Notes: generated by a model not told the origin, from the sequence alone. 32,429 bases of DNA from a virus (IMGVR_UViG_3300033148_005858:1-32429), one strand, 5' to 3'; shown: positions 20,691-29,056, numbered from the stretch's first letter. Numbers and translations: made by a program.

Positions 20691-21482
20691 ATGAAAACAC
20701 CTCTGACTTACTACGGCGGCAAGCAGCGCCTGGCAGATAAGATCATCAAGCTGATTCCGAAGCACAATCTTTATTGCGAGCCTTTTGTTGGCGGCGGTGC
20801 CGTGTTTTTCCGCAAAGAACCGTCGCCTGTGGAAGTGATCAACGACATCAACTCCGAGCTGATCAATTTCTATGAAGTGGTGCAGCGGGATTTTGTGTCT
20901 CTGGAGAAAGAAGTGACGATCAGTCTACACAGCCGAGATCTGCACCGGCGAGCACAGGTGATCTACCAGAATCCGGATATGTTCGACAAAATCAAGCGCG
21001 CTTGGGCGGTATGGGTGCTGGCGAACCTCTCGTTTGCATCTAACTTGAACAATGTCTACGCATATAGCAAAACAGTCACGCGGACAAGGGCCTTTCGCAA
21101 TAAACGAGACTCCTTCACCTATGAGATGGCGATCCGCCTGCAGGATGTGCAAATCGAATGCGCCGATGCGCTGCGAATAATTCGCAGCCGTGATGGTAGG
21201 GAAAGTTTCTTCTATTGCGATCCTCCCTACTACAACGCAGACATGGGCCATTATGATGGCTACACTAAAGAGGATTTCAAGATGCTCTTGGATGCTCTAT
21301 CCGGAATCAAGGGAAAGTTTCTTCTGAGTTCATATCCTGGCGATCTGATTGGTGAATATGTTAAACAAAACGGATGGCATCGGATCTCACTGAATATGTC
21401 ATTGTCTGCACCGTTGAAGCCGAAGCGAAAAATCGAAGTACTTACAGCGAATTACGAGCTTCTCCGGATAGACGAATCCTAA
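20691..21482 (+). CDS. DNA adenine methylase, Dam/D12 class
   Basis: 263 aa with the D12-class N6-adenine methyltransferase motifs: KTPLTYYGGKQRLADKIIKL at the N-terminus, SAM-binding CEPFVGGGAVFF at about 29-40, and catalytic DPPYYNADMGHYDG near 178. The likely target is GATC or a related site, but specificity cannot be read from sequence alone. No good ribosome site precedes the ATG, and base composition is a bit lower in GC than the tail genes. It may protect phage DNA from host restriction or act in packaging control. Confidence 0.9.
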   Translation: MKTPLTYYGGKQRLADKIIKLIPKHNLYCEPFVGGGAVFFRKEPSPVEVINDINSELINFYEVVQRDFVSLEKEVTISLHSRDLHRRAQVIYQNPDMFDKIKRAWAVWVLANLSFASNLNNVYAYSKTVTRTRAFRNKRDSFTYEMAIRLQDVQIECADALRIIRSRDGRESFFYCDPPYYNADMGHYDGYTKEDFKMLLDALSGIKGKFLLSSYPGDLIGEYVKQNGWHRISLNMSLSAPLKPKRKIEVLTANYELLRIDES

Positions 21483-21489
21483 GATTTCA

Positions 21490-22101
21490 CTACCGGATCT
21501 GTCCCAGCTGCTTTTTCGCCTCGCGCATGAAGATAGCGTTCATCACGCTACGCTTGGAAAACTTGCTCACCGCCTCGCTGTGCCAGCGGGTGGGCCTGAG
21601 CCGGTAGCTGCGGATGCTGATATCCCGGATCATAATCAAGCGCTTCCCTTTGCGGGTATACAATCCAGGCTTGCGGGTGGGGAGAAAGAAGAATTTGCTA
21701 CCCCGTCCGATCGGTCCGATTTGATTCATCCGATAGCGTCGGGCTACGGGCTTGGTTTTCAGCCCGCTTGTGCGCGCCGCCTTCGTGGGTATGGCAATCC
21801 GCCGCCTCCTGGCCCGCACCGTCCCGCCTTTCTCCTGCAGGGGCAGGTATGGGCTCTTCGAGCCAGTGACGGCGTAGCCGACTCTGCCGCTGCTTCGCAC
21901 CCTGGCCTCAGAGAAGCGGATCGAGCGCTCGGTGTAGCGGTTGCGGAGGGTGAAGCGCTCGCGGACGTTTCGCAGACTGCGGTTATGAGCGGCTTTCGCA
22001 ACCGCGTTGATGGTTGCGGCTTGCGCCTTCGGCAGGCCGTCTTTCGTGTATTTCTGCAGTGCCCGCTGGTAGGCTCGGACACTGGTAAACGTTCGGTTCA
22101 T
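21490..22101 (-). CDS. Tail protein Z-like (lambda gpZ type), opposite strand
   Basis: 203 aa, basic, with RAYQRALQKYTKDGLPKAQA and INAVAKAAHNRSLRNVRERF at the N-terminus. An Arg-rich centre (RARRRRIAIPTKAA) and a C-terminal RDISIRSYRLRPTRWH follow. The pattern recalls lambda gpZ/minor tail proteins, which also begin with a helix carrying an A-x-x-x-IN-x-VA motif. It runs against all late genes, ends eight bases from the Dam stop, and starts beside the attachment region. If functional it would be transcribed in lysogeny or from its own promoter, which is odd for a tail protein. Confidence 0.6.
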   Translation of the reverse strand: MNRTFTSVRAYQRALQKYTKDGLPKAQAATINAVAKAAHNRSLRNVRERFTLRNRYTERSIRFSEARVRSSGRVGYAVTGSKSPYLPLQEKGGTVRARRRRIAIPTKAARTSGLKTKPVARRYRMNQIGPIGRGSKFFFLPTRKPGLYTRKGKRLIMIRDISIRSYRLRPTRWHSEAVSKFSKRSVMNAIFMREAKKQLGQIR

Positions 22102-22371: not shown

Positions 22372-22433
22372 GCCCTGTGTTACGCGGATTATTACGCTTG
22401 ATTTTGGGCTTTTAGCATGATATTGTGTGGCTT

Positions 22434-23675
22434 ATGAGACAACCCTATATAATCTATAGACGCAAGCAAAGCGGCCGAATCTACCAGGTCGCGTTCTGGG
22501 ATGAAAACCGCCAGCGCTACGCACTGCGCCGCTCAGCCGATACCCTGATCCGAGAGCTCGGTGAGCGCGCCCGCCATCTCTCGCCCACGACACGAGCGGG
22601 GGCTGATGCGGCAGCGCGCATATTCCTTGATCTCGGCCTCCCCGCTTCCAGGGGCGAGGACCTTTACTCGTACCTTGAGCACTTCTGGCAGCCCGATGGT
22701 GAGCACGCGCGGATCTGCGCTGGAGCTGGAAATCCTCTGTCTACAGCCTATCTCACGGCGAACAACCAAGCGATCGACAAATACATACTGCCGTGGTTGC
22801 GCGATACACAGCGCAGGCGCCTGCGGATCTCCCAGTTCACCACGGGAATGCTCGAAGAGCTGAAACTCCACCTGCAGGGCCAGGAGAGCCGCGGGCGCCC
22901 GCTTTCCGCACGCCGCGTCAACGGCATCATGCAGGCCGTGACCGTGGCCCTGGGGGAGGCGAAGCGGCTTGGCAAGATCCAGGTTAACCCGGCGGCGAGC
23001 ATCCGTAGGCTCAAGGAGAGTAAGCCCACACGCCATATCCTCACCCTGCAGGAGGCGGCAAAATTATTTACGCGAGATTGGCCCGAGCCCCGGCAAAAGG
23101 CGATCAACCTGCTGGCCGCGTTCACGGGTATGCGCCTGGGCGAGTGCTTGGGATTGCAGGCCGAGGACATCCAGCAGCGGCAGATCAAGGTCGGGGAGAA
23201 AGAGATCGAGTATTGGGTGGTAGACCTCCGGCACAACTGGCAGGCTGGAGAAGGGCTCAAGGCACCGAAGGGCGGCTCTTATGGAGAGCTGCCGATCCCC
23301 GACTCCTGCGCGAAAGTCCTCCTACGGCTGGCCGGAGAAAACCCGTGGGAAAACGGGTTCGTGTTCTACGGCTCGCTGCGGGACAAACCCATGCACGGGC
23401 GCGGGGTCAGTGAGGCTTTCCGGGGGGCCATCAACGCGATCGGCATATCCGAGGAGGAGCGGAAGCGACGACGGCTCACCTTCCACGCCTGGCGGCACTG
23501 GTACAACAGCATGATCCGGGCTCAAGGTAACCTGCCCGACTACGCGCTCCGGCAGCTCACCCGGCATAAGGCCGAGCAGATGACGGAGCGGTATACCGAC
23601 ATCCTGCCGGAGCAGCGGGAGCAGCAGCGGCAGGCGGTGGCTAAGATCGCGGAAGGCGTTCTATCTAATAGGTGA
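22434..23675 (+). CDS. int: Tyrosine integrase
   Basis: 413 aa from the ATG at 22434 (a GTG at 22425 is in frame; neither has a clear ribosome site). N-terminal Arm/SAM-like part: RQPYIIYRRKQSGRIYQVAF, and a core-binding helix region at about 75-190. Catalytic domain: FTGMRLGECLG (Arg I), HAWRHWYNS (HxxR) and the nucleophile Tyr in TERYTDIL. It inserts the phage at the tRNA-Gly site and, with an excisionase not seen here, removes it. The gene reads away from the att core, 128 bases to its left. Confidence 0.95.
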   Translation: MRQPYIIYRRKQSGRIYQVAFWDENRQRYALRRSADTLIRELGERARHLSPTTRAGADAAARIFLDLGLPASRGEDLYSYLEHFWQPDGEHARICAGAGNPLSTAYLTANNQAIDKYILPWLRDTQRRRLRISQFTTGMLEELKLHLQGQESRGRPLSARRVNGIMQAVTVALGEAKRLGKIQVNPAASIRRLKESKPTRHILTLQEAAKLFTRDWPEPRQKAINLLAAFTGMRLGECLGLQAEDIQQRQIKVGEKEIEYWVVDLRHNWQAGEGLKAPKGGSYGELPIPDSCAKVLLRLAGENPWENGFVFYGSLRDKPMHGRGVSEAFRGAINAIGISEEERKRRRLTFHAWRHWYNSMIRAQGNLPDYALRQLTRHKAEQMTERYTDILPEQREQQRQAVAKIAEGVLSNR

Positions 23676-23889
23676 TTGACTGCACGTCGACCAGCTTCAC
23701 CTGTTGGAGCGAGCGAAGCAGTTGCAGCCAATAGGGAAGGAGCTGAAGGCGATAAAATCTCTCTGATTAACTGCCACTAGAAGTACAATGTTTTCGATCT
23801 GAAGGAGCGGAATTCGCCGATGTTAAAACGTAGTCTTGTTCCCCACCCGTCAAAAGGATAGAGTGAAACTAAAGAGAAAAGGATGCGTT
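23676..23889 (+). other. Junction between integrase and defence island
   Basis: GC falls sharply across this 214-base gap. A short open frame ending at the TGA at about 23767 reads VDQLHLLERAKQLQPIGKEL and a few more residues with no start codon, perhaps the tail of a gene lost when the island arrived. No terminator was found after the integrase. The ribosome site for the next gene is AAAAGGA at about 23877-23883. Confidence 0.35.
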
Positions 23890-25941
23890 ATGTCTCGCTA
23901 CAAGATGACCATATCCAGATTAACCGTAGACAAGCTTGGTGTCAAGCTTTATGACCGAGTCTCGGCTGCAATTTCGGAGATTATCGCAAACAGCTATGAT
24001 GCTGACGCAAAAACCGTAACGATACGGGCTCCTATGGGCGAACTCTTGGCATCGAAGTCGAAGAATCAATTACTCGATAAGGGCTTTACAATTGAAATCG
24101 AGGATGATGGTGTAGGAATGACTCCGGATGAGATCAATGATTTTTATCTCGTGGTGGGTGCGGAGCGACGGAAAGATCCTCGAAGAGGCGATCTGTCTCC
24201 GAGTAGCAAACGAAAGGTAATGGGGCGAAAGGGCGTAGGCAAGTTGGCACCTTTCGGTATTTGTCAGAAAATCGAAATAATATCTGCCGGCGGAGAATAT
24301 GGAAAACAAGGACATCCGGTAGCGCATTTGACATTGGACAGGGCGGAGATCTTGGAAGACACTGATTCGAACTACTATCCAGATGTCGGAGAAAAGGATG
24401 GAACTTTTGCAGCGAAAACAGGGACCACGATCATTCTCAGGCAGTTTGAACATAGACACGTACCGGATATTGCTAATCTTGAACGACAACTATCGCAACG
24501 GTTCGGAATCGAGTCGCCCGACTGGTCAATCCAGTTGGTAAACACCATCGATGCCGGGTCAAATAGCCGAAAGGTTGGATTATTCGAGATCTCGTTAATG
24601 CAACACACGAAGATCGAATTCAAAGAAAACAAAGTTCTACTTCCCGATGGCAAGGGCGGATCCAAACCTGCTAATGATTTGGAAGCAGGCTTCAATCATG
24701 ATGGGGTGTTCTATCCTATTACTGGTTGGGTTGCATATGCCGAAAAACCCTATAGAGATGAATTGATGGCCGGTATTCGGATCTACTGTCGCGGCAAAAT
24801 CGCAGCAAAAACTTCAGTGTTCAATCTCCGCGCCGGATTCACTGGGGAGCATGACGTCAGATCTTACCTCGTGGGTAGGTTGGATGCCGATTGGCTTGAC
24901 GAGAATGAAGATCTTCTCAGAACTGACCGCCAAGATATTCTGTGGTCAGACGAGCTTGGCCAAGAGTTTGAACAATGGGGTCAGAAAATCGTAAAAAAAA
25001 TGGGGCGCATTACTAGATTGCCAATGCGAGTACAAATCTGGGATCTCTTTTTAGAAGAAACCGAATTCATCCGTAGGATTGAAGAACGCTTCCCAGGACC
25101 GGAAAAGTCTAGTATTCGCAGCAATACCGAGCGAATTATGAAGGTTATTGCTCAGAAGCTCAGAAAAGAGGAATTCGACGATAAATCACATCTAGAATCC
25201 CTTGTCCAAATTGGTTTGCTACTGGGACCTCACATCACGGTCGATGAAGAACTTAGCAAAGTAGCGGACGATCAGGATAGCCCTCTTGGCGTAATTGCGA
25301 ATCTTATGCGCACGGCAAGGATTGCTGAGCTGGCATCATTTGGTCGTACTGCCGATACTCGTGTTCGCGTGATTCGGAAGTTTGAATCGTTGATTAGTAG
25401 TCCTGGTGCCGATGAAGCGGAACTGCAGGCTCTTGTATCAGAATCTCCGTGGCTGATAAATCCGGAATGGCATCCAGTCACGTCAAACCAGGCATTCCGT
25501 ACACTTCGCTCGGAGCTCCAAAAATATTTTAAAAAGGTAACGGGAGAAGACATCACGTTTGACGGTCTCGGAGGCTTGAAAAGACCGGATTTCGTATTAC
25601 TTGCACATGAAGGGATAATCCAAGTTGTCGAAATTAAAGCACCGGGACACACGCTGCAAAACGAAGAGATGAATCGAATCAATACGTACCACGACGTGAT
25701 TAAGAGTTTCCTGGAAGATCCCGGTAATAGCGCATTCAAACAAATTTATCCGGACTTTCAAATTACTGTTGTTTGCGATCACGTTGGCATAGATGGTGTG
25801 CATAGAACTGCTTTCGATGGACTCAAGGGACAGGGACGGCTCCTGCAACACACTTGGAGTGCTTTTCTGTTGAAGACGAGGCAGACGCACGAGGACTTCC
25901 TAAAGACCGCAGAACAAGAGCTTAGTAATGAAACAGATTGA
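23890..25941 (+). CDS. GHKL ATPase (MORC/MutL-like) fused to PD-(D/E)XK nuclease domain
   Basis: 683 aa from the ATG at 23890, seven bases after AAGGA; an in-frame start 54 bases upstream lacks a ribosome site. GHKL ATPase motifs: SEIIANSYDADA (Glu30, Asn34, Asp37), EDDGVGM (71-77), GRKGVGKLAPFGI (112-124) and a TTIIL segment. The C-terminal 130 residues look like a PD-(D/E)XK nuclease of the DUF4263/Shedu type: RPDFVLL (Asp567) and VVEIKAP (Glu581, Lys583), with a preceding SESPWLINPEW. Related ATPases are known beside C5-methylases and Vsr-like nucleases in predicted restriction systems. It is probably an ATP-driven restriction nuclease. It overlaps the methylase gene by 14 bases. Confidence 0.85.
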   Translation: MSRYKMTISRLTVDKLGVKLYDRVSAAISEIIANSYDADAKTVTIRAPMGELLASKSKNQLLDKGFTIEIEDDGVGMTPDEINDFYLVVGAERRKDPRRGDLSPSSKRKVMGRKGVGKLAPFGICQKIEIISAGGEYGKQGHPVAHLTLDRAEILEDTDSNYYPDVGEKDGTFAAKTGTTIILRQFEHRHVPDIANLERQLSQRFGIESPDWSIQLVNTIDAGSNSRKVGLFEISLMQHTKIEFKENKVLLPDGKGGSKPANDLEAGFNHDGVFYPITGWVAYAEKPYRDELMAGIRIYCRGKIAAKTSVFNLRAGFTGEHDVRSYLVGRLDADWLDENEDLLRTDRQDILWSDELGQEFEQWGQKIVKKMGRITRLPMRVQIWDLFLEETEFIRRIEERFPGPEKSSIRSNTERIMKVIAQKLRKEEFDDKSHLESLVQIGLLLGPHITVDEELSKVADDQDSPLGVIANLMRTARIAELASFGRTADTRVRVIRKFESLISSPGADEAELQALVSESPWLINPEWHPVTSNQAFRTLRSELQKYFKKVTGEDITFDGLGGLKRPDFVLLAHEGIIQVVEIKAPGHTLQNEEMNRINTYHDVIKSFLEDPGNSAFKQIYPDFQITVVCDHVGIDGVHRTAFDGLKGQGRLLQHTWSAFLLKTRQTHEDFLKTAEQELSNETD

Positions 25942-27013
25942 TATCTATGCCATCGACTTGTTCGCCGGGGGAGGCGGCCTTACTGTCGGACTTAAAAGAG
26001 CCGGGTTTAAAGTGATTGGCGCTATAGAAATTGAAAAGCACGCATATTCAACTTACAAGGTGAATCATCCGGAAGTAACCGCATATAGACAAGACATCAG
26101 AAAAATAAAAGGCACGGATTTTCTCGCCTTATCACCTACGAACGAAATCCACCTTGTTGCAGGCTGTCCTCCGTGTCAGGGTTTTACTAGTCTGACTGCA
26201 AAATACACAAATGAAGATCCAAGAAACGAACTCATTCGCGAAATGACCCGACTTGTGAATGAAATACGTCCGACTGCCGTGATGATGGAGAATGTGCCAG
26301 GCTTAGCCCACCGTGGACGATATTTGTTGGATGAGTTTGTGGCGGAAATAGAAAGCATGGGCTACATAGTGCGATCTCAGATATTGAATTTACTCAACTA
26401 TGGAGTACCCCAATATCGAAAGAGACTGGTTTTACTGGCTGGTAAAGGCTTCGAAATCACACATCCGCCTCCAAGTCACTCGAAGAAAGGTGAAGAGGGA
26501 TTAACACGCTGGCGTACAGTCCGCGATACGATTTTCGGTCTTCCCAATCCAGTCGTGCTAAAAGATACGCTGAAATCGGGTGGGCCACAGAACTTCGATT
26601 GGCACGTAATCCGAGCGATTTCTGAGACGAATAAAAATCGACTTCAAGCGCTCTTACCAGGAGAGACAAGAGCGGCGCTCCCTCGATGGCTTCGTCCCAA
26701 GTGTCATAAAGGTATCGATACAGGATTTAGCAATGTCTACAGCCGAATGCGATGGGACGAACCTGCACCTACGATAACTGCTGGATGCACTACTCCAAGC
26801 AAAGGTCGTTTTGGTCATCCTTTTCGAGACGGAACGATATCCGTACGTGAAGCAGCCTTGTTGCAGACATTTCCTGCGGACTATGTGATTGACACACCGT
26901 ATATGACGTATGCGTGCGACATTGTTGGAAATGCGCTGCCTTGTGATTTCGCGGCCGCGATCTCTAGCCGGTGTTATGAGGCAATAATCGAGCACTTGAG
27001 AAATGTCGAATAA
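25928..27013 (+). CDS. DNA C5-cytosine methyltransferase
   Basis: 361 aa with the ordered motifs of the family: DLFAGGGGLTVGLKRAG (motif I, 10-26), GCPPCQGF with catalytic Cys83 (motif IV), MMENVPGLAH (motif VI, 119-128), NYGVPQYRKRLVLLAG (motif VIII), and the C-terminal PAPTITAGCTTPSKGRF, AALLQTFPADY and GNALPCDFAAAI (motifs IX-X). It marks self DNA so that the neighbouring nucleases spare it. Target specificity is unknown. It is coupled to the ATPase gene by overlap and overlaps vsr by 11 bases. GC is lower than in the tail genes. Confidence 0.95.
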   Translation: MKQIDIYAIDLFAGGGGLTVGLKRAGFKVIGAIEIEKHAYSTYKVNHPEVTAYRQDIRKIKGTDFLALSPTNEIHLVAGCPPCQGFTSLTAKYTNEDPRNELIREMTRLVNEIRPTAVMMENVPGLAHRGRYLLDEFVAEIESMGYIVRSQILNLLNYGVPQYRKRLVLLAGKGFEITHPPPSHSKKGEEGLTRWRTVRDTIFGLPNPVVLKDTLKSGGPQNFDWHVIRAISETNKNRLQALLPGETRAALPRWLRPKCHKGIDTGFSNVYSRMRWDEPAPTITAGCTTPSKGRFGHPFRDGTISVREAALLQTFPADYVIDTPYMTYACDIVGNALPCDFAAAISSRCYEAIIEHLRNVE

Positions 27014-27437
27014 ATTCCCGAACCTCGATCCAGCTACCAGCGAGCGAATGAAGAAAGTACGACGACGCGAGACTCCAATTGAAAACGTGGTATTCAGACA
27101 TCTTCAAAGCGAAGGGTATGTTCTCGTGAGGAACGACGAGACTCTTCCAGGAAGCCCTGACATCGTATTGCCGAATAAAAAATTGGTGGTATTCGTCCAC
27201 GGATGTTTCTGGCATGGTCATACCAATTGTGAAAAAGCCACTCTCCCTCGGACCAGAACATCATGGTGGGCTAATAAAATCCAAGCAAATAAAAAGCGTG
27301 ACCAACGATCGAAGAGCGCACTCAGAGAAATGGGTTGGAACGTAATTGTCGTCTGGGAGTGTGAGTTAAGAAACCGCGAAACGCGTCAGCGGCGACTAGA
27401 AAAGCTCGTGACTCAGATCCAGCGATCTCAGTCCTGA
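27003..27437 (+). CDS. vsr: Very-short-patch repair (Vsr-type) endonuclease
   Basis: 144 aa with Vsr hallmarks: DLVRND-like LVRNDETLPGSPDIVLP with Asp53, and VVFVHGCFWHGHTNC (63-77) with His66, His71 and likely zinc ligands Cys68, His73 and Cys77, plus VVWECEL late on. Vsr nicks T:G mismatches that arise when 5-methylcytosine deaminates, which suits the neighbouring C5-methylase. In some predicted restriction operons the Vsr-like protein is instead taken as a restriction nuclease. It ends the operon; its 3' end overlaps a small leftward frame by ten bases. Confidence 0.92.
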   Translation: MSNKFPNLDPATSERMKKVRRRETPIENVVFRHLQSEGYVLVRNDETLPGSPDIVLPNKKLVVFVHGCFWHGHTNCEKATLPRTRTSWWANKIQANKKRDQRSKSALREMGWNVIVVWECELRNRETRQRRLEKLVTQIQRSQS

Positions 27438-27541
27438 GTTGTCGTGAAGCTCGTTCCCTCCCCACCCGCCTGTTCCTGCTCCATCTTCTCCAGGACCTGG
27501 TCGTCTATGTAGAGACAGTCGTTGAGTTCTGAATCTATCAT
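27428..27541 (-). CDS. Short acidic protein coupled to MshEN-like gene
   Basis: 37 aa, starting at ATG 27541 in an ATGA overlap with the stop of the MshEN-like gene. It begins MIDSELNDCLYIDDQVLEKM and resembles two other decayed copies in this region (LYVDDQVPEKMEEE, ICVNDRVLEKMEEE). The last ~13 residues (AGGEGTSFTTTQD) differ from the other copies, so the defence-island junction has probably replaced the original end. The function is unknown. Confidence 0.45.
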   Translation of the reverse strand: MIDSELNDCLYIDDQVLEKMEQEQAGGEGTSFTTTQD

Positions 27542-27891
27542 ACCTGCAGCTTCCCCGTCGGCCATAGGGTGATGGAGACCGGTTTTCCGGTAGCCTTGGC
27601 TTGGTAGATCGCACACTTCTGCGGCCATTCGATACAGTAGAGCTCTTTCAATCTTAAATTAGATGCGACCATTTCTTTTATGTTATAGAAGTTACAGCTT
27701 GTTCGATACCGACAGCCGGTTTTTATATTGAGGTAGGATTGCAGAGCCTCGTCGTTGATATACCCAAGTTCGATTGCGATCTCTCCGAACAACCGGTTGT
27801 CTCCAGCCTTTTGCGCGCGGAGTACATCCTCCACCTGGGAGGGCTTCATGGCGCCGATCCGAACCAATGTTTCACCTATCTTCTCGCTCAT
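27538..27891 (-). CDS. MshEN-like domain plus four-cysteine domain protein
   Basis: 117 aa. Residues 1-55 have the helical MshEN/type II secretion ATPase N-domain pattern: MSEKIGETLVRIGAMKPSQV and LFGEIAIELGYINDEALQSY. Such domains in secretion ATPases bind cyclic-di-GMP; that is not shown for this branch. The second half has Cys pairs CRYRTSC-NFYN and YCIEWPQKC-AIYQ and ends GKPVSITLWPTGKL, perhaps metal-binding. I recall similar small proteins in spirochaetes. It is the complete member of a repeated cassette (a damaged copy lies at 28.7-29.1 kb). Confidence 0.65.
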   Translation of the reverse strand: MSEKIGETLVRIGAMKPSQVEDVLRAQKAGDNRLFGEIAIELGYINDEALQSYLNIKTGCRYRTSCNFYNIKEMVASNLRLKELYCIEWPQKCAIYQAKATGKPVSITLWPTGKLQV

Positions 27892-27892
27892 C

Positions 27893-28156
27893 TCAAAACC
27901 CCATCATTACATCGCTGATATACCCTCGCAGCTGCTTTTCCCATTGTTTGGAGCCGTAGTGTTCGAGCAACTCGTATTCCGTGAATGTGAAAATCGATTT
28001 CTCGCCGCCTCGGAAAACGAATAACCGATGGATCCCGGCGACCGAATTGTGTGAATCCTGGTCCCAGGATAGTGCGTCTACCCGATCAGCGCCTTTTTTC
28101 TGCAGTTCTCGAGTGATGAAATTCTGGGCTTCGCGGAGTTTCTCTGCTTCTGTCAT
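27893..28156 (-). CDS. Unknown 87-aa protein
   Basis: Starts at ATG 28156, overlapping the stop of a broken upstream copy, and ends one base before the MshEN-like gene start region. Sequence MTEAEKLREAQNFITRELQK, then ADRVDALSWDQDSHNSVAGI and HRLFVFRGGEKSIFTFTEYE, suggests a small alpha/beta protein. No cysteine pair, membrane segment or signal. It is probably co-transcribed with the MshEN-like gene. No family recognised. Confidence 0.55.
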   Translation of the reverse strand: MTEAEKLREAQNFITRELQKKGADRVDALSWDQDSHNSVAGIHRLFVFRGGEKSIFTFTEYELLEHYGSKQWEKQLRGYISDVMMGF

Positions 28157-28251
28157 CAGCGTTTCACTTTCCCGAACTGCCGTTCCCAGAACTCCTACTC
28201 CTCCTCCATCTTCTCCAGGACCCGGTCGTTTACGCAGATCCGGCCGAACAG
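28156..28251 (-). pseudogene. Broken copy of the short acidic gene
   Basis: Reading leftwards from 28251, after an in-frame TAG, comes LFGRICVNDRVLEKMEEE, a stop, then in the same frame EFWERQFGKVKR and a stop at 28156-28158. It matches the DDQV-LEKMEEE type of the other two copies, and LFG-x-I also resembles the MshEN-like motif, so it may be a fusion remnant. No start codon or ribosome site is present. Confidence 0.45.
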
Positions 28252-28330
28252 CTATTGATGGGGGAGGCTATTAATCAGGCAATTTATTCCAATATTGAAA
28301 AGAGACATGATACTGACAATCTTTTTCATT

Positions 28331-28720
28331 CTATGCTATCGACCTTTTGCTTGCTGCATTGGCTATAAGTGCTAGAATCCCACATAATACGTATATAGGG
28401 CCGGTTACATAGGATGCTAATGATGTTGTTATAATTCCGCAGAGGATCAAAAGAACGCTCAGCACAATCCCTGTGACTTTTTTCGATTCTTTGCCTGATG
28501 CCATGGTTCCAAAGATCAGTCCCGCAACAACGAATATGAGTGATCCAATCAATTTTGTCATTGTTGTCGTTGATTGTTCTATCGTCTGTTTAGCCTCATC
28601 GGCTGTCTGAAAAACAGTGGAAATACTGCCTCCAGCGGCTACACCAAAAAAGCCAATAATCGCCCAGACAATCCCTACAACACCTGCAATGATGACGAGG
28701 ATCCTCACAGCAGTTTTCAT
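28331..28720 (-). CDS. Four-helix membrane protein
   Basis: 129 aa from ATG 28720 (GGAAGAAAT just upstream; coupled by ATGA to the short gene before it). Hydrophobic segments lie at about 5-27 (VRILVIIAGVVGIVWAIIGF), 56-73 (LIGSLIFVVAGLIFGTMA), 80-100 (VTGIVLSVLLILCGIITTSL) and 104-123. A soluble TADEAKQTIEQS region lies between the first two. This topology resembles DUF4064-type small membrane proteins. Possible lysogenic-conversion role; unknown. Confidence 0.6.
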   Translation of the reverse strand: MKTAVRILVIIAGVVGIVWAIIGFFGVAAGGSISTVFQTADEAKQTIEQSTTTMTKLIGSLIFVVAGLIFGTMASGKESKKVTGIVLSVLLILCGIITTSLASYVTGPIYVLCGILALIANAASKRSIA

Positions 28721-28866
28721 ATTTCTTCCTCCATTTTCTCCGGGACTTGATCGTCCACATAAAGATAATCGCTGAGTTTTACATCTATCACGCCTGCAGC
28801 TTTCCCGTAGGCCATGTAGAAATGGCAGGTATCGCGATATTCGCAATCGCTTTCGTATTCTGGCAT
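28717..28866 (-). CDS. Chimaeric short gene from damaged cassette copy
   Basis: 49 aa from ATG 28866. The start MPEYESDCEYRDTCHFY matches the first cysteine pair of the complete gene (CRYRTSCNFY). It then runs into MAYGKAAGVIDVKL-SDYLYVDDQVPEKMEEE. In another frame the same DNA ends WPTGKLQ then an aliphatic residue and stop, as the complete copy does. So an internal deletion removed the second cysteine pair and joined two frames. ATGA coupling to the membrane protein gene suggests it may still be translated. Confidence 0.5.
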   Translation of the reverse strand: MPEYESDCEYRDTCHFYMAYGKAAGVIDVKLSDYLYVDDQVPEKMEEEI

Positions 28867-28867
28867 A

Positions 28868-29056
28868 TTATACTTCCCAGGCTGTCTTAGCCTCCACGTA
28901 CTTCCTGAGGATCGCGTCGTTGATATATCCGAAATCTATGGCGATCTCACCGAAGAGGCGTTTATCTCCGGCCTGCTGGATATTCAGCACTTCGTCCACC
29001 TGGTCTGATCGCATCACCCCGATCCGGACCAGAAACTCACCGATTTTTTCGCTCAT
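28868..29056 (-). CDS. MshEN-like domain protein, second copy (cysteine domain lost)
   Basis: 62 aa beginning MSEKIGEFLVRIGVMRSDQV and containing LFGEIAIDFGYINDAILRKY, clearly like residues 1-58 of the gene at 27538-27891. It stops (WEV) where the other copy enters its cysteine domain; that domain survives only in part in the next small frame. A G-run of 12 bases (on the coding strand) lies five bases before the ATG, so translation could change with run length. Confidence 0.6.
   Translation of the reverse strand: MSEKIGEFLVRIGVMRSDQVDEVLNIQQAGDKRLFGEIAIDFGYINDAILRKYVEAKTAWEV

What the first reader, a model, noticed from the sequence alone, without database searches (positions are those of the whole stretch)
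23890..27437. Phage-borne three-gene island: GHKL ATPase-nuclease fusion, C5-methylase and Vsr
Three overlapping genes encode an ATPase with GHKL motifs and a C-terminal PD-(D/E)XK domain (Asp567, Glu581, Lys583), a C5-cytosine methyltransferase and a Vsr endonuclease. Their GC is clearly lower than that of the tail genes, and the flanks look like insertion scars. MORC/MutL-like ATPases next to methylases and Vsr-type nucleases are known as predicted restriction systems. The fusion with a DUF4263/Shedu-like nuclease inside a temperate phage makes this a good candidate for a poorly studied inter-phage defence system.
Basis: partly seen in the sequence, partly recalled or inferred. Interest (0 to 1): 0.75.

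Follow-up and report, generated by a model that had tools for sequence, protein, structure and literature searches.

The report
Phage-carried ATPase-nuclease restriction-modification cassette
A temperate phage carries a compact three-gene restriction-modification cassette (an ATP-driven DNA-cutting enzyme, the DNA-marking enzyme that protects against it, and a repair nuclease) of a kind predicted in 2008 and found here in many bacteria, plasmids and phages, so it is a well-formed new member of a known kind and not a new defence principle.

Summary
Window 23890-27437 encodes three overlapping genes: a 683-aa GHKL ATPase with a C-terminal nuclease (E509-D567-E581xK583), a C5-cytosine methyltransferase (Cys83) and a complete Vsr endonuclease. 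They lie inside a temperate phage, between the integrase and the lysogeny genes, and their GC is clearly lower than that of the structural genes. A sister phage lacks the cassette between the corresponding genes.

The ATPase-nuclease belongs to the paraMORC3 architecture (Iyer et al. 2008). Over its full length it matches NCBI's BbrUII/HgiDII restriction-enzyme family, but below the curated cut-off. A C5 methylase lies within 1 kb in 140 of 167 family loci, and Vsr within 2.5 kb in 35. The best reading is therefore a Type II-like restriction-modification-repair cassette carried as phage cargo. GHKL-plus-nuclease proteins already have experimental support in phage defence (VcSduA).

The Shedu/DUF4263 link is weak: about half of the family members match SduA_C, and the window protein does not. 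Novelty is limited to a diverged subfamily with its own target-recognition domain and unknown recognition site.

The most interesting side finding is that the same cassette sits between hsdS and hsdR of Type I systems in two genomes.

The parts
23890..25941 (+). R: 683-aa paraMORC3-type restriction enzyme: GHKL ATPase (about 1-200), S5/transducer-like middle part (about 200-340), long helical linker (about 355-500), C-terminal nuclease (about 505-683; E509, D567, E581, K583)
   Evidence: HATPase_c_3 E=6e-19; NF050001 BbrUII/HgiDII full length E=8.7e-71, 239 bits, cut-off 550; AF2 model pLDDT 87.4; MORC2/Hsp90 fold matches; conserved motifs
25928..27013 (+). M: 361-aa C5-cytosine DNA methyltransferase (FAGGG at 12, PPC Cys83, ENV Glu121, QYRKR at 162, GNALP at 334; target-recognition domain about 195-272)
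   Evidence: DNA_methylase E=1.5e-52; dcm TIGR00675 146 bits, cut-off 100.65; motifs; overlaps R by 14 bp
27003..27437 (+). V: 144-aa Vsr mismatch endonuclease; catalytic set E27, D53, H66, H71 and zinc ligands C68, H73, C76, C120
   Evidence: TIGR00632 119.7 bits, cut-off 97.85; alignment to E. coli Vsr 1cw0, E=8.5e-30; positions; overlaps M by 11 bp
23840..23849 (+). left copy of the 10-bp direct repeat TCCCCACCCG that brackets the cassette (possible insertion scar, weak)
27459..27468 (+). right copy of the 10-bp direct repeat TCCCCACCCG
22425..23675 (+). phage tyrosine integrase directly upstream; left boundary of the cassette's site
   Evidence: Phage_integrase E=9.9e-13; 45% identical integrase in sister phage L169, followed there by the marker gene with no R-M genes between
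27538..27891 (-). small phage gene directly downstream; right boundary marker, homologous to L169:8281-8439(-)
   Evidence: 55% identity over 53 aa, E=6e-16

Best explanation
It is a Type II-like restriction-modification cassette with its own repair gene, carried as optional cargo by a temperate phage. The methylase marks one cytosine of a short, so far unknown, target in the lysogen's and the prophage's DNA. The R protein works as a dimer: ATP binding closes its two GHKL heads, the middle part clamps DNA, and the two C-terminal PD-(D/E)XK domains are brought together to cut DNA whose target sites are unmethylated, such as that of an incoming competing phage or plasmid. Vsr nicks the T:G mismatches left when the methylated cytosine deaminates, so the host genome does not lose its sites by mutation. 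Translational overlap keeps R, M and V expressed together during lysogeny. Shown here: the genes, their motifs, the fold of the ATPase part, the conserved neighbourhood, phage location and a cassette-less sister phage. Inferred: dimerisation, ATP-gated cutting, co-expression, recognition site, restriction of phages.
For: R matches the BbrUII/HgiDII restriction-enzyme family over its full length, E=8.7e-71, and PADLOC Type II REase, E=3.4e-31. ATPase and nuclease residues are invariant or at least 90% conserved in 63 homologues. The AF2 model places a GHKL plus transducer unit like MORC2-DNA and Hsp90 (Foldseek E about 2e-11) before an alpha/beta nuclease domain. A C5 methylase lies within 1 kb in 140 of 167 loci, 30 of 33 in the close clade, nearly always in the order R then M. 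Methylase hits per 1.5-kb bin fall from 133/309 next to R to 6/286, 5/266, 1/235 and 4/214 further out, and Vsr hits fall from 24/309 and 9/286 to 1/266, 1/235 and 0/214. Phage genes lie on both sides, and the corresponding place in L169 is empty of R-M genes. Literature: paraMORC3 next to DCM and Vsr (PMC2292703); the relatives M.HgiDII and M.BbrUII are 5mC methylases, GTCGAC (PMC5867850, PMC5005818); GHKL (E27A) and nuclease (K557A) mutants of VcSduA lose phage defence (PMC12137116).
Against: The window R protein scores 239 bits, below the curated 550-bit cut-off of the BbrUII family. The nuclease fold is supported only by conserved residues, topology and weak fold matches (best E 0.012). 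Twenty of 54 loci in the second clade have no C5 methylase within 1 kb, and stand-alone paraMORC3 proteins such as VcSduA defend without one. No recognition site could be inferred: site counts in the phage are uninformative and the TRD differs from those of BbrUII-type partners. No promoter was found.
Confidence: 0.82

Rival explanations
1. A stand-alone Shedu-like (VcSduA-like) defence effector that senses phage DNA ends, structures or proteins, with a methylase and Vsr that happen to ride along for other reasons, such as protecting phage DNA from host restriction.
For: VcSduA has the same GHKL plus nuclease order and defends without a methylase (PMC12137116). SduA_C matches 36 of 63 family members and PADLOC SduA models match some. 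Some family members lack a nearby C5 methylase.
Against: The methylase is adjacent and co-oriented in 29 of 33 close-clade loci and overlaps R here. The window protein itself has no SduA_C match at E<0.1. Full-length similarity is to a restriction-enzyme family.
Confidence: 0.1
2. A phage self-protection and repair unit: M shields the phage genome from host restriction, Vsr repairs deaminated sites, and R is a MutL-like mismatch-repair ATPase-endonuclease and not a restriction enzyme.
For: MutL NCBIfam models match 58 of 63 members weakly. Vsr works with MutL in E. coli (named in PMC2292703). Phages often carry lone methylases.
Against: The nuclease is a separate PD-(D/E)XK-type domain unlike MutL's. 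No MutS-like partner is in the cassette. Family members are restriction enzymes by NCBI and PADLOC curation.
Confidence: 0.05
3. A decayed or silent cassette: genes intact in frame but not expressed or not active in this phage.
For: No sigma-70-like promoter was found just upstream. Only sequence is available.
Against: All catalytic residues in all three genes are intact and reading frames overlap without frameshifts. No stops inside R.
Confidence: 0.03

Closest known systems
paraMORC3 family of restriction-modification GHKL ATPases (Iyer, Abhiman and Aravind 2008, PMC2292703)
   Same: GHKL plus S5-type module plus C-terminal RE-fold domain with E-D-ExK; neighbours are DNA cytosine methylases and Vsr; patchy, laterally mobile distribution
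   Different: Nothing architectural. The window protein adds one more phage-borne member with a complete R-M-V order.
BbrUII/HgiDII family Type II restriction enzymes (NCBIfam NF050001) and their GTCGAC methylases
   Same: Full-length match of R (E=8.7e-71) and an adjacent C5 methylase
   Different: Score 239, below the 550 cut-off. Order is R then M, while the distant members tallied (which include the plasmid-borne ones above the cut-off, L006 and L007) mostly have M before R or convergent. TRD identity is 25-39% to the more distant methylases, partners of NF050001 members included, against 42-50% in its own clade, so GTCGAC cannot be assumed.
VcSduA, Shedu type I-D (GHKL plus DUF4263) defence protein of Vibrio cholerae VSP-II (PMC12137116)
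   Same: Same domain order; the paper itself notes such proteins were annotated as paraMORC3
   Different: VcSduA is described without a partner methylase or Vsr; the window protein has no detectable SduA_C match
ParaMORC3 plus Dcm pair of Escherichia phage PhiR44_1 (PV340563.1)
   Same: Phage-borne paraMORC3 next to a C5 methylase
   Different: About 21% identical; R and M convergent; no Vsr; a P2-like phage
R+M pair in E. coli lambdoid prophages (for example NZ_CP083512.1, WP_021548141.1 and WP_024190764.1)
   Same: Close relatives (R 49%, M 55% identical), R then M, inside a prophage
   Different: No Vsr; inserted among replication and late-regulation genes, not next to the integrase

Membership tests
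paraMORC3 (Iyer et al. 2008) | N-terminal GHKL domain with intact ATP-binding motifs | tested here: met
   HATPase_c_3 E=6e-19; E30, N34, D72, G74, G76, G112-K118 invariant in 63 homologues
paraMORC3 (Iyer et al. 2008) | S5-type domain C-terminal to GHKL | tested here: met
   AF2 model aligns with the MORC2 ATPase module over about 465 columns, E=2e-11
paraMORC3 (Iyer et al. 2008) | additional C-terminal globular domain with E-D-ExK of the RE fold | tested here: met
   E509, D567, E581xK583 conserved; helix, then strands 568-572 and 576-582, then helix in the model
paraMORC3 (Iyer et al. 2008) | RE (PD-(D/E)XK) fold by structure comparison | tested here: inconclusive
   Foldseek of the C-terminal model: MspJI E=0.012, Hef 0.022, FokI 0.034, Shedu 0.17; right kind of enzyme, none significant
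BbrUII/HgiDII restriction enzyme (NCBIfam NF050001 equivalog) | score above the curated cut-off of 550 bits | tested here: not met
   239 bits, E=8.7e-71, full length; true members such as L007 score 829
BbrUII/HgiDII restriction enzyme | recognition and cleavage of GTCGAC | not testable with these tools
   TRD diverged from that of NF050001 partners; phage site counts uninformative
Shedu (SduA) | SduA_C / DUF4263 nuclease domain (PF14082) | tested here: inconclusive
   no match for the window protein at E<0.1; 36 of 63 relatives match weakly, best 2.6e-5
Type II restriction-modification system | restriction enzyme and cognate methylase genes adjacent | tested here: met
   R and M overlap by 14 bp; adjacency conserved in 140 of 167 loci
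Type II restriction-modification system | site-specific cleavage blocked by the methylase | not testable with these tools
   needs biochemistry or plating assays
C5-cytosine methyltransferase (dcm, TIGR00675) | score above cut-off and motifs I, IV, VI, VIII, X | tested here: met
   146 bits, cut-off 100.65; motifs located
Vsr endonuclease (TIGR00632) | score above cut-off; catalytic and zinc residues | tested here: met
   119.7 bits, cut-off 97.85; all eight residues align with E. coli Vsr 1cw0

The most novel reading that the evidence does not exclude
The close clade (window, 45-54% identical homologues in many phyla, several phage types) is a separate subfamily of ATP-gated Type II restriction enzymes with its own target sequence. 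Its R-M(-V) cassette moves as a unit into temperate phages and even into the middle of Type I restriction operons, where it adds a second restriction activity to the same transcript.
Probability: 0.3. Interest if true: 0.45.

Novelty: new member of a known kind. Interest (0 to 1): 0.27.

Why it matters
Restriction enzymes driven by a GHKL (MutL/Hsp90/MORC-type) ATPase are biochemically little known, and they are the proposed ancestors of eukaryotic MORC proteins. A compact phage cassette with the full set R, M and V, together with close relatives in E. coli prophages, gives a tractable system in which to test whether ATP closes the enzyme on DNA and gates cutting. As a defence island in a phage it is ordinary: prophages often carry restriction systems.

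Tried and rejected
(1) Close relatives by single-protein search in viral contigs: none; a family alignment was needed. (2) Host genome: none is held, the window is a lone virus record. (3) Recognition site from palindrome avoidance in the phage: GTCGAC is 4 against 11 expected, but several unrelated hexamers deviate as much, so no inference was made. (4) Direct nuclease match in the PDB by sequence profile: none significant; Shedu 8ps4 appears at E=0.76. (5) Nuclease fold by Foldseek: weak. (6) Viral structure library: the significant matches are other GHKL-type proteins (Hsp90-like, RIIA, topoisomerases) or unnamed ones. (7) Integrase found next to R by iterating the window integrase: no second case, although L089 has an unrelated integrase there. 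(8) Promoters: none above chance. (10) MutL-like mismatch-repair reading: rejected because nuclease and neighbours differ. (11) Low GC as proof of insertion: rejected because the right flank is equally low.

Full report
What is there. Three + strand genes overlap at 23890-25941, 25928-27013 and 27003-27437. Gene 1 starts at the ATG at 23890; an upstream TTG would add 18 residues. Gene 1 has an N-terminal HATPase_c_3 domain, gene 2 is a C5-cytosine methylase (above the dcm cut-off) and gene 3 is a Vsr endonuclease (above the vsr cut-off). Vsr keeps the full catalytic and zinc set when aligned with E. coli Vsr (the roles of those residues are from my knowledge of the E. coli enzyme).

Where it is. 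The window is a 32,429-base virus record with no host genome held. Terminase, portal, capsid, baseplate and tail genes lie to the left, then a Dam-like methylase and an integrase; an antirepressor and other phage-like genes lie to the right. So the cassette is inside the phage, in the region where temperate phages keep lysogeny and cargo genes. A sister phage, L169, has a 45% identical integrase. After it, with no R-M genes between, comes a homologue of the small gene that follows Vsr here (55% over 53 aa). L169 has a different 160-aa reading frame in between, so this is an empty site at the level of gene order, not a base-exact one. A 10-bp direct repeat brackets the cassette, suggestive only.

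What family. R matches NCBI's BbrUII/HgiDII restriction-enzyme model from end to end (E=8.7e-71) but at 239 bits against a cut-off of 550; plasmid-borne members such as L007 score 829. It therefore belongs to the same superfamily but is not an equivalog. PADLOC calls it a Type II restriction enzyme. Domain content equals paraMORC3 of Iyer et al. (PMC2292703): GHKL, S5, and a C-terminal RE domain with E-D-ExK, found next to cytosine methylases and Vsr. A phage record is already annotated that way (PhiR44_1, ParaMORC3 next to Dcm).

The nuclease. The AF2 model is confident overall (pLDDT 87.4). Foldseek aligns the first two thirds with MORC2-DNA and Hsp90. The C-terminal model (pLDDT 84) has the order expected of a PD-(D/E)XK core, with D567, E581 and K583 at two adjacent strands and E509 on the preceding helix. 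The best PDB matches include nucleases of this superfamily (MspJI, Hef, FokI, Shedu) but none is significant. The Shedu domain SduA_C matches 36 of 63 relatives weakly and not the window protein. The statement 'Shedu-like' is thus fair for the family and unproven for this member.

Neighbourhood survey. The scans returned 80 loci from genomes and 80 from viral contigs, plus 7 plasmid or phage records. With a methylase profile, 140 of 167 loci have a C5 methylase within 1 kb, and 35 have Vsr within 2.5 kb. Further away the hits drop to a few percent or less. Some loci are near copies, so the counts are not independent events. In the close clade (45-54% identity) 29 of 33 have R then M on one strand, and five have R-M-V exactly as here. 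In the second clade 20 of 54 lack a C5 methylase within 1 kb, many of them Nocardia; Iyer et al. also note stand-alone paraMORC3 genes. The tree of 43 rows mixes phyla and puts phage-borne members in several places (four label changes, not significantly clustered), as expected of mobile cargo.

Specificity. M.HgiDII and M.BbrUII methylate GTCGAC (PMC5867850; PMC5005818). The window's methylase shares 42-50% of its target-recognition region with its own clade but 25-39% with more distant methylases, including those beside NF050001-type enzymes. The target should be treated as unknown. Site counts in the phage do not help.

How it probably works. Methylase protects lysogen and prophage; ATP-bound R dimerises, clamps DNA and cuts unmethylated targets; Vsr counters loss of sites by deamination. 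Genes, motifs, fold of the ATPase part, neighbourhood and location are shown; dimerisation, ATP gating, site and antiphage effect are inferred. Support by analogy: in VcSduA, a GHKL+DUF4263 protein, mutation of the ATPase glutamate or of the nuclease lysine abolishes defence (PMC12137116).

Verdict. The interpretation as a restriction-type cassette is right, and the Shedu link is weak. The claim of a poorly studied new system is not borne out: it is a new member of a known kind, of modest interest. The lead most worth following is the insertion of the same R-M-V cassette between hsdS and hsdR of Type I systems (L014, L016).

Noticed in passing
L014:288-11669 and L016:6754-15105: The close-clade R-M-V cassette lies between hsdS and hsdR of a Type I restriction operon (Methylase_S before, HsdR domains after; hsdM checked in L014 only): a Type II-like cassette nested in a Type I operon, in Nitrospirales and Candidatus Binatia MAGs.
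   Followed up: partly
L172 (NZ_CP083512.1 112187-139388): Closely related R+M pair (annotated only as ATP-binding protein and DNA cytosine methyltransferase) in a lambdoid prophage of E. coli; at >=99% DNA identity in 21 of 5426 complete E. coli genomes. A ready laboratory model.
   Followed up: partly
L103, L109, L116, L152: Methylases 48-54% identical to the window's sit next to R proteins that are only about 25% identical, which suggests re-pairing of methylases with different paraMORC3 enzymes.
   Followed up: no
L034, L035, L041-L043, L045, L047-L049 and other Nocardia loci: About 40% identical R homologues with no C5 methylase within 1 kb: stand-alone members, or members paired with another methylase type not looked for.
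   Followed up: no
window 27538-27891(-) and 28868-29056(-); L169:8254-8628(-): Small repeated phage proteins sharing EKIGE-L-RIG...QV--VL--Q--GD-R-FGEIA---GYI, also joined to another N-terminal stretch in L169. By eye they resemble MshEN-type domains, but Pfam (E<0.01) and PHROGs give no match.
   Followed up: partly
window 27469-28815: DNA repeats of 45-93 bp at 69-84% identity at 27469, 28194 and 28719 (27473 and 28723 for the 93-bp pair), encoding similar C-terminal ends of neighbouring minus-strand genes: local gene duplication.
   Followed up: no
window 20691-21482(+): A second, D12-class adenine methylase (Dam-like, 96.6 bits, below the 114.85 cut-off) upstream of the integrase, also of low GC (48%): the phage carries two DNA methylases.
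   Followed up: no
window 21674-21683(-), 23840-23849(+), 27459-27468(+): TCCCCACCCG occurs three times exactly against 0.09 expected; two direct copies bracket the cassette.
   Followed up: partly
L089:6412-11676: Another viral contig with the order integrase, R, M, Vsr as in the window, but with an integrase not detected by the window integrase profile.
   Followed up: partly
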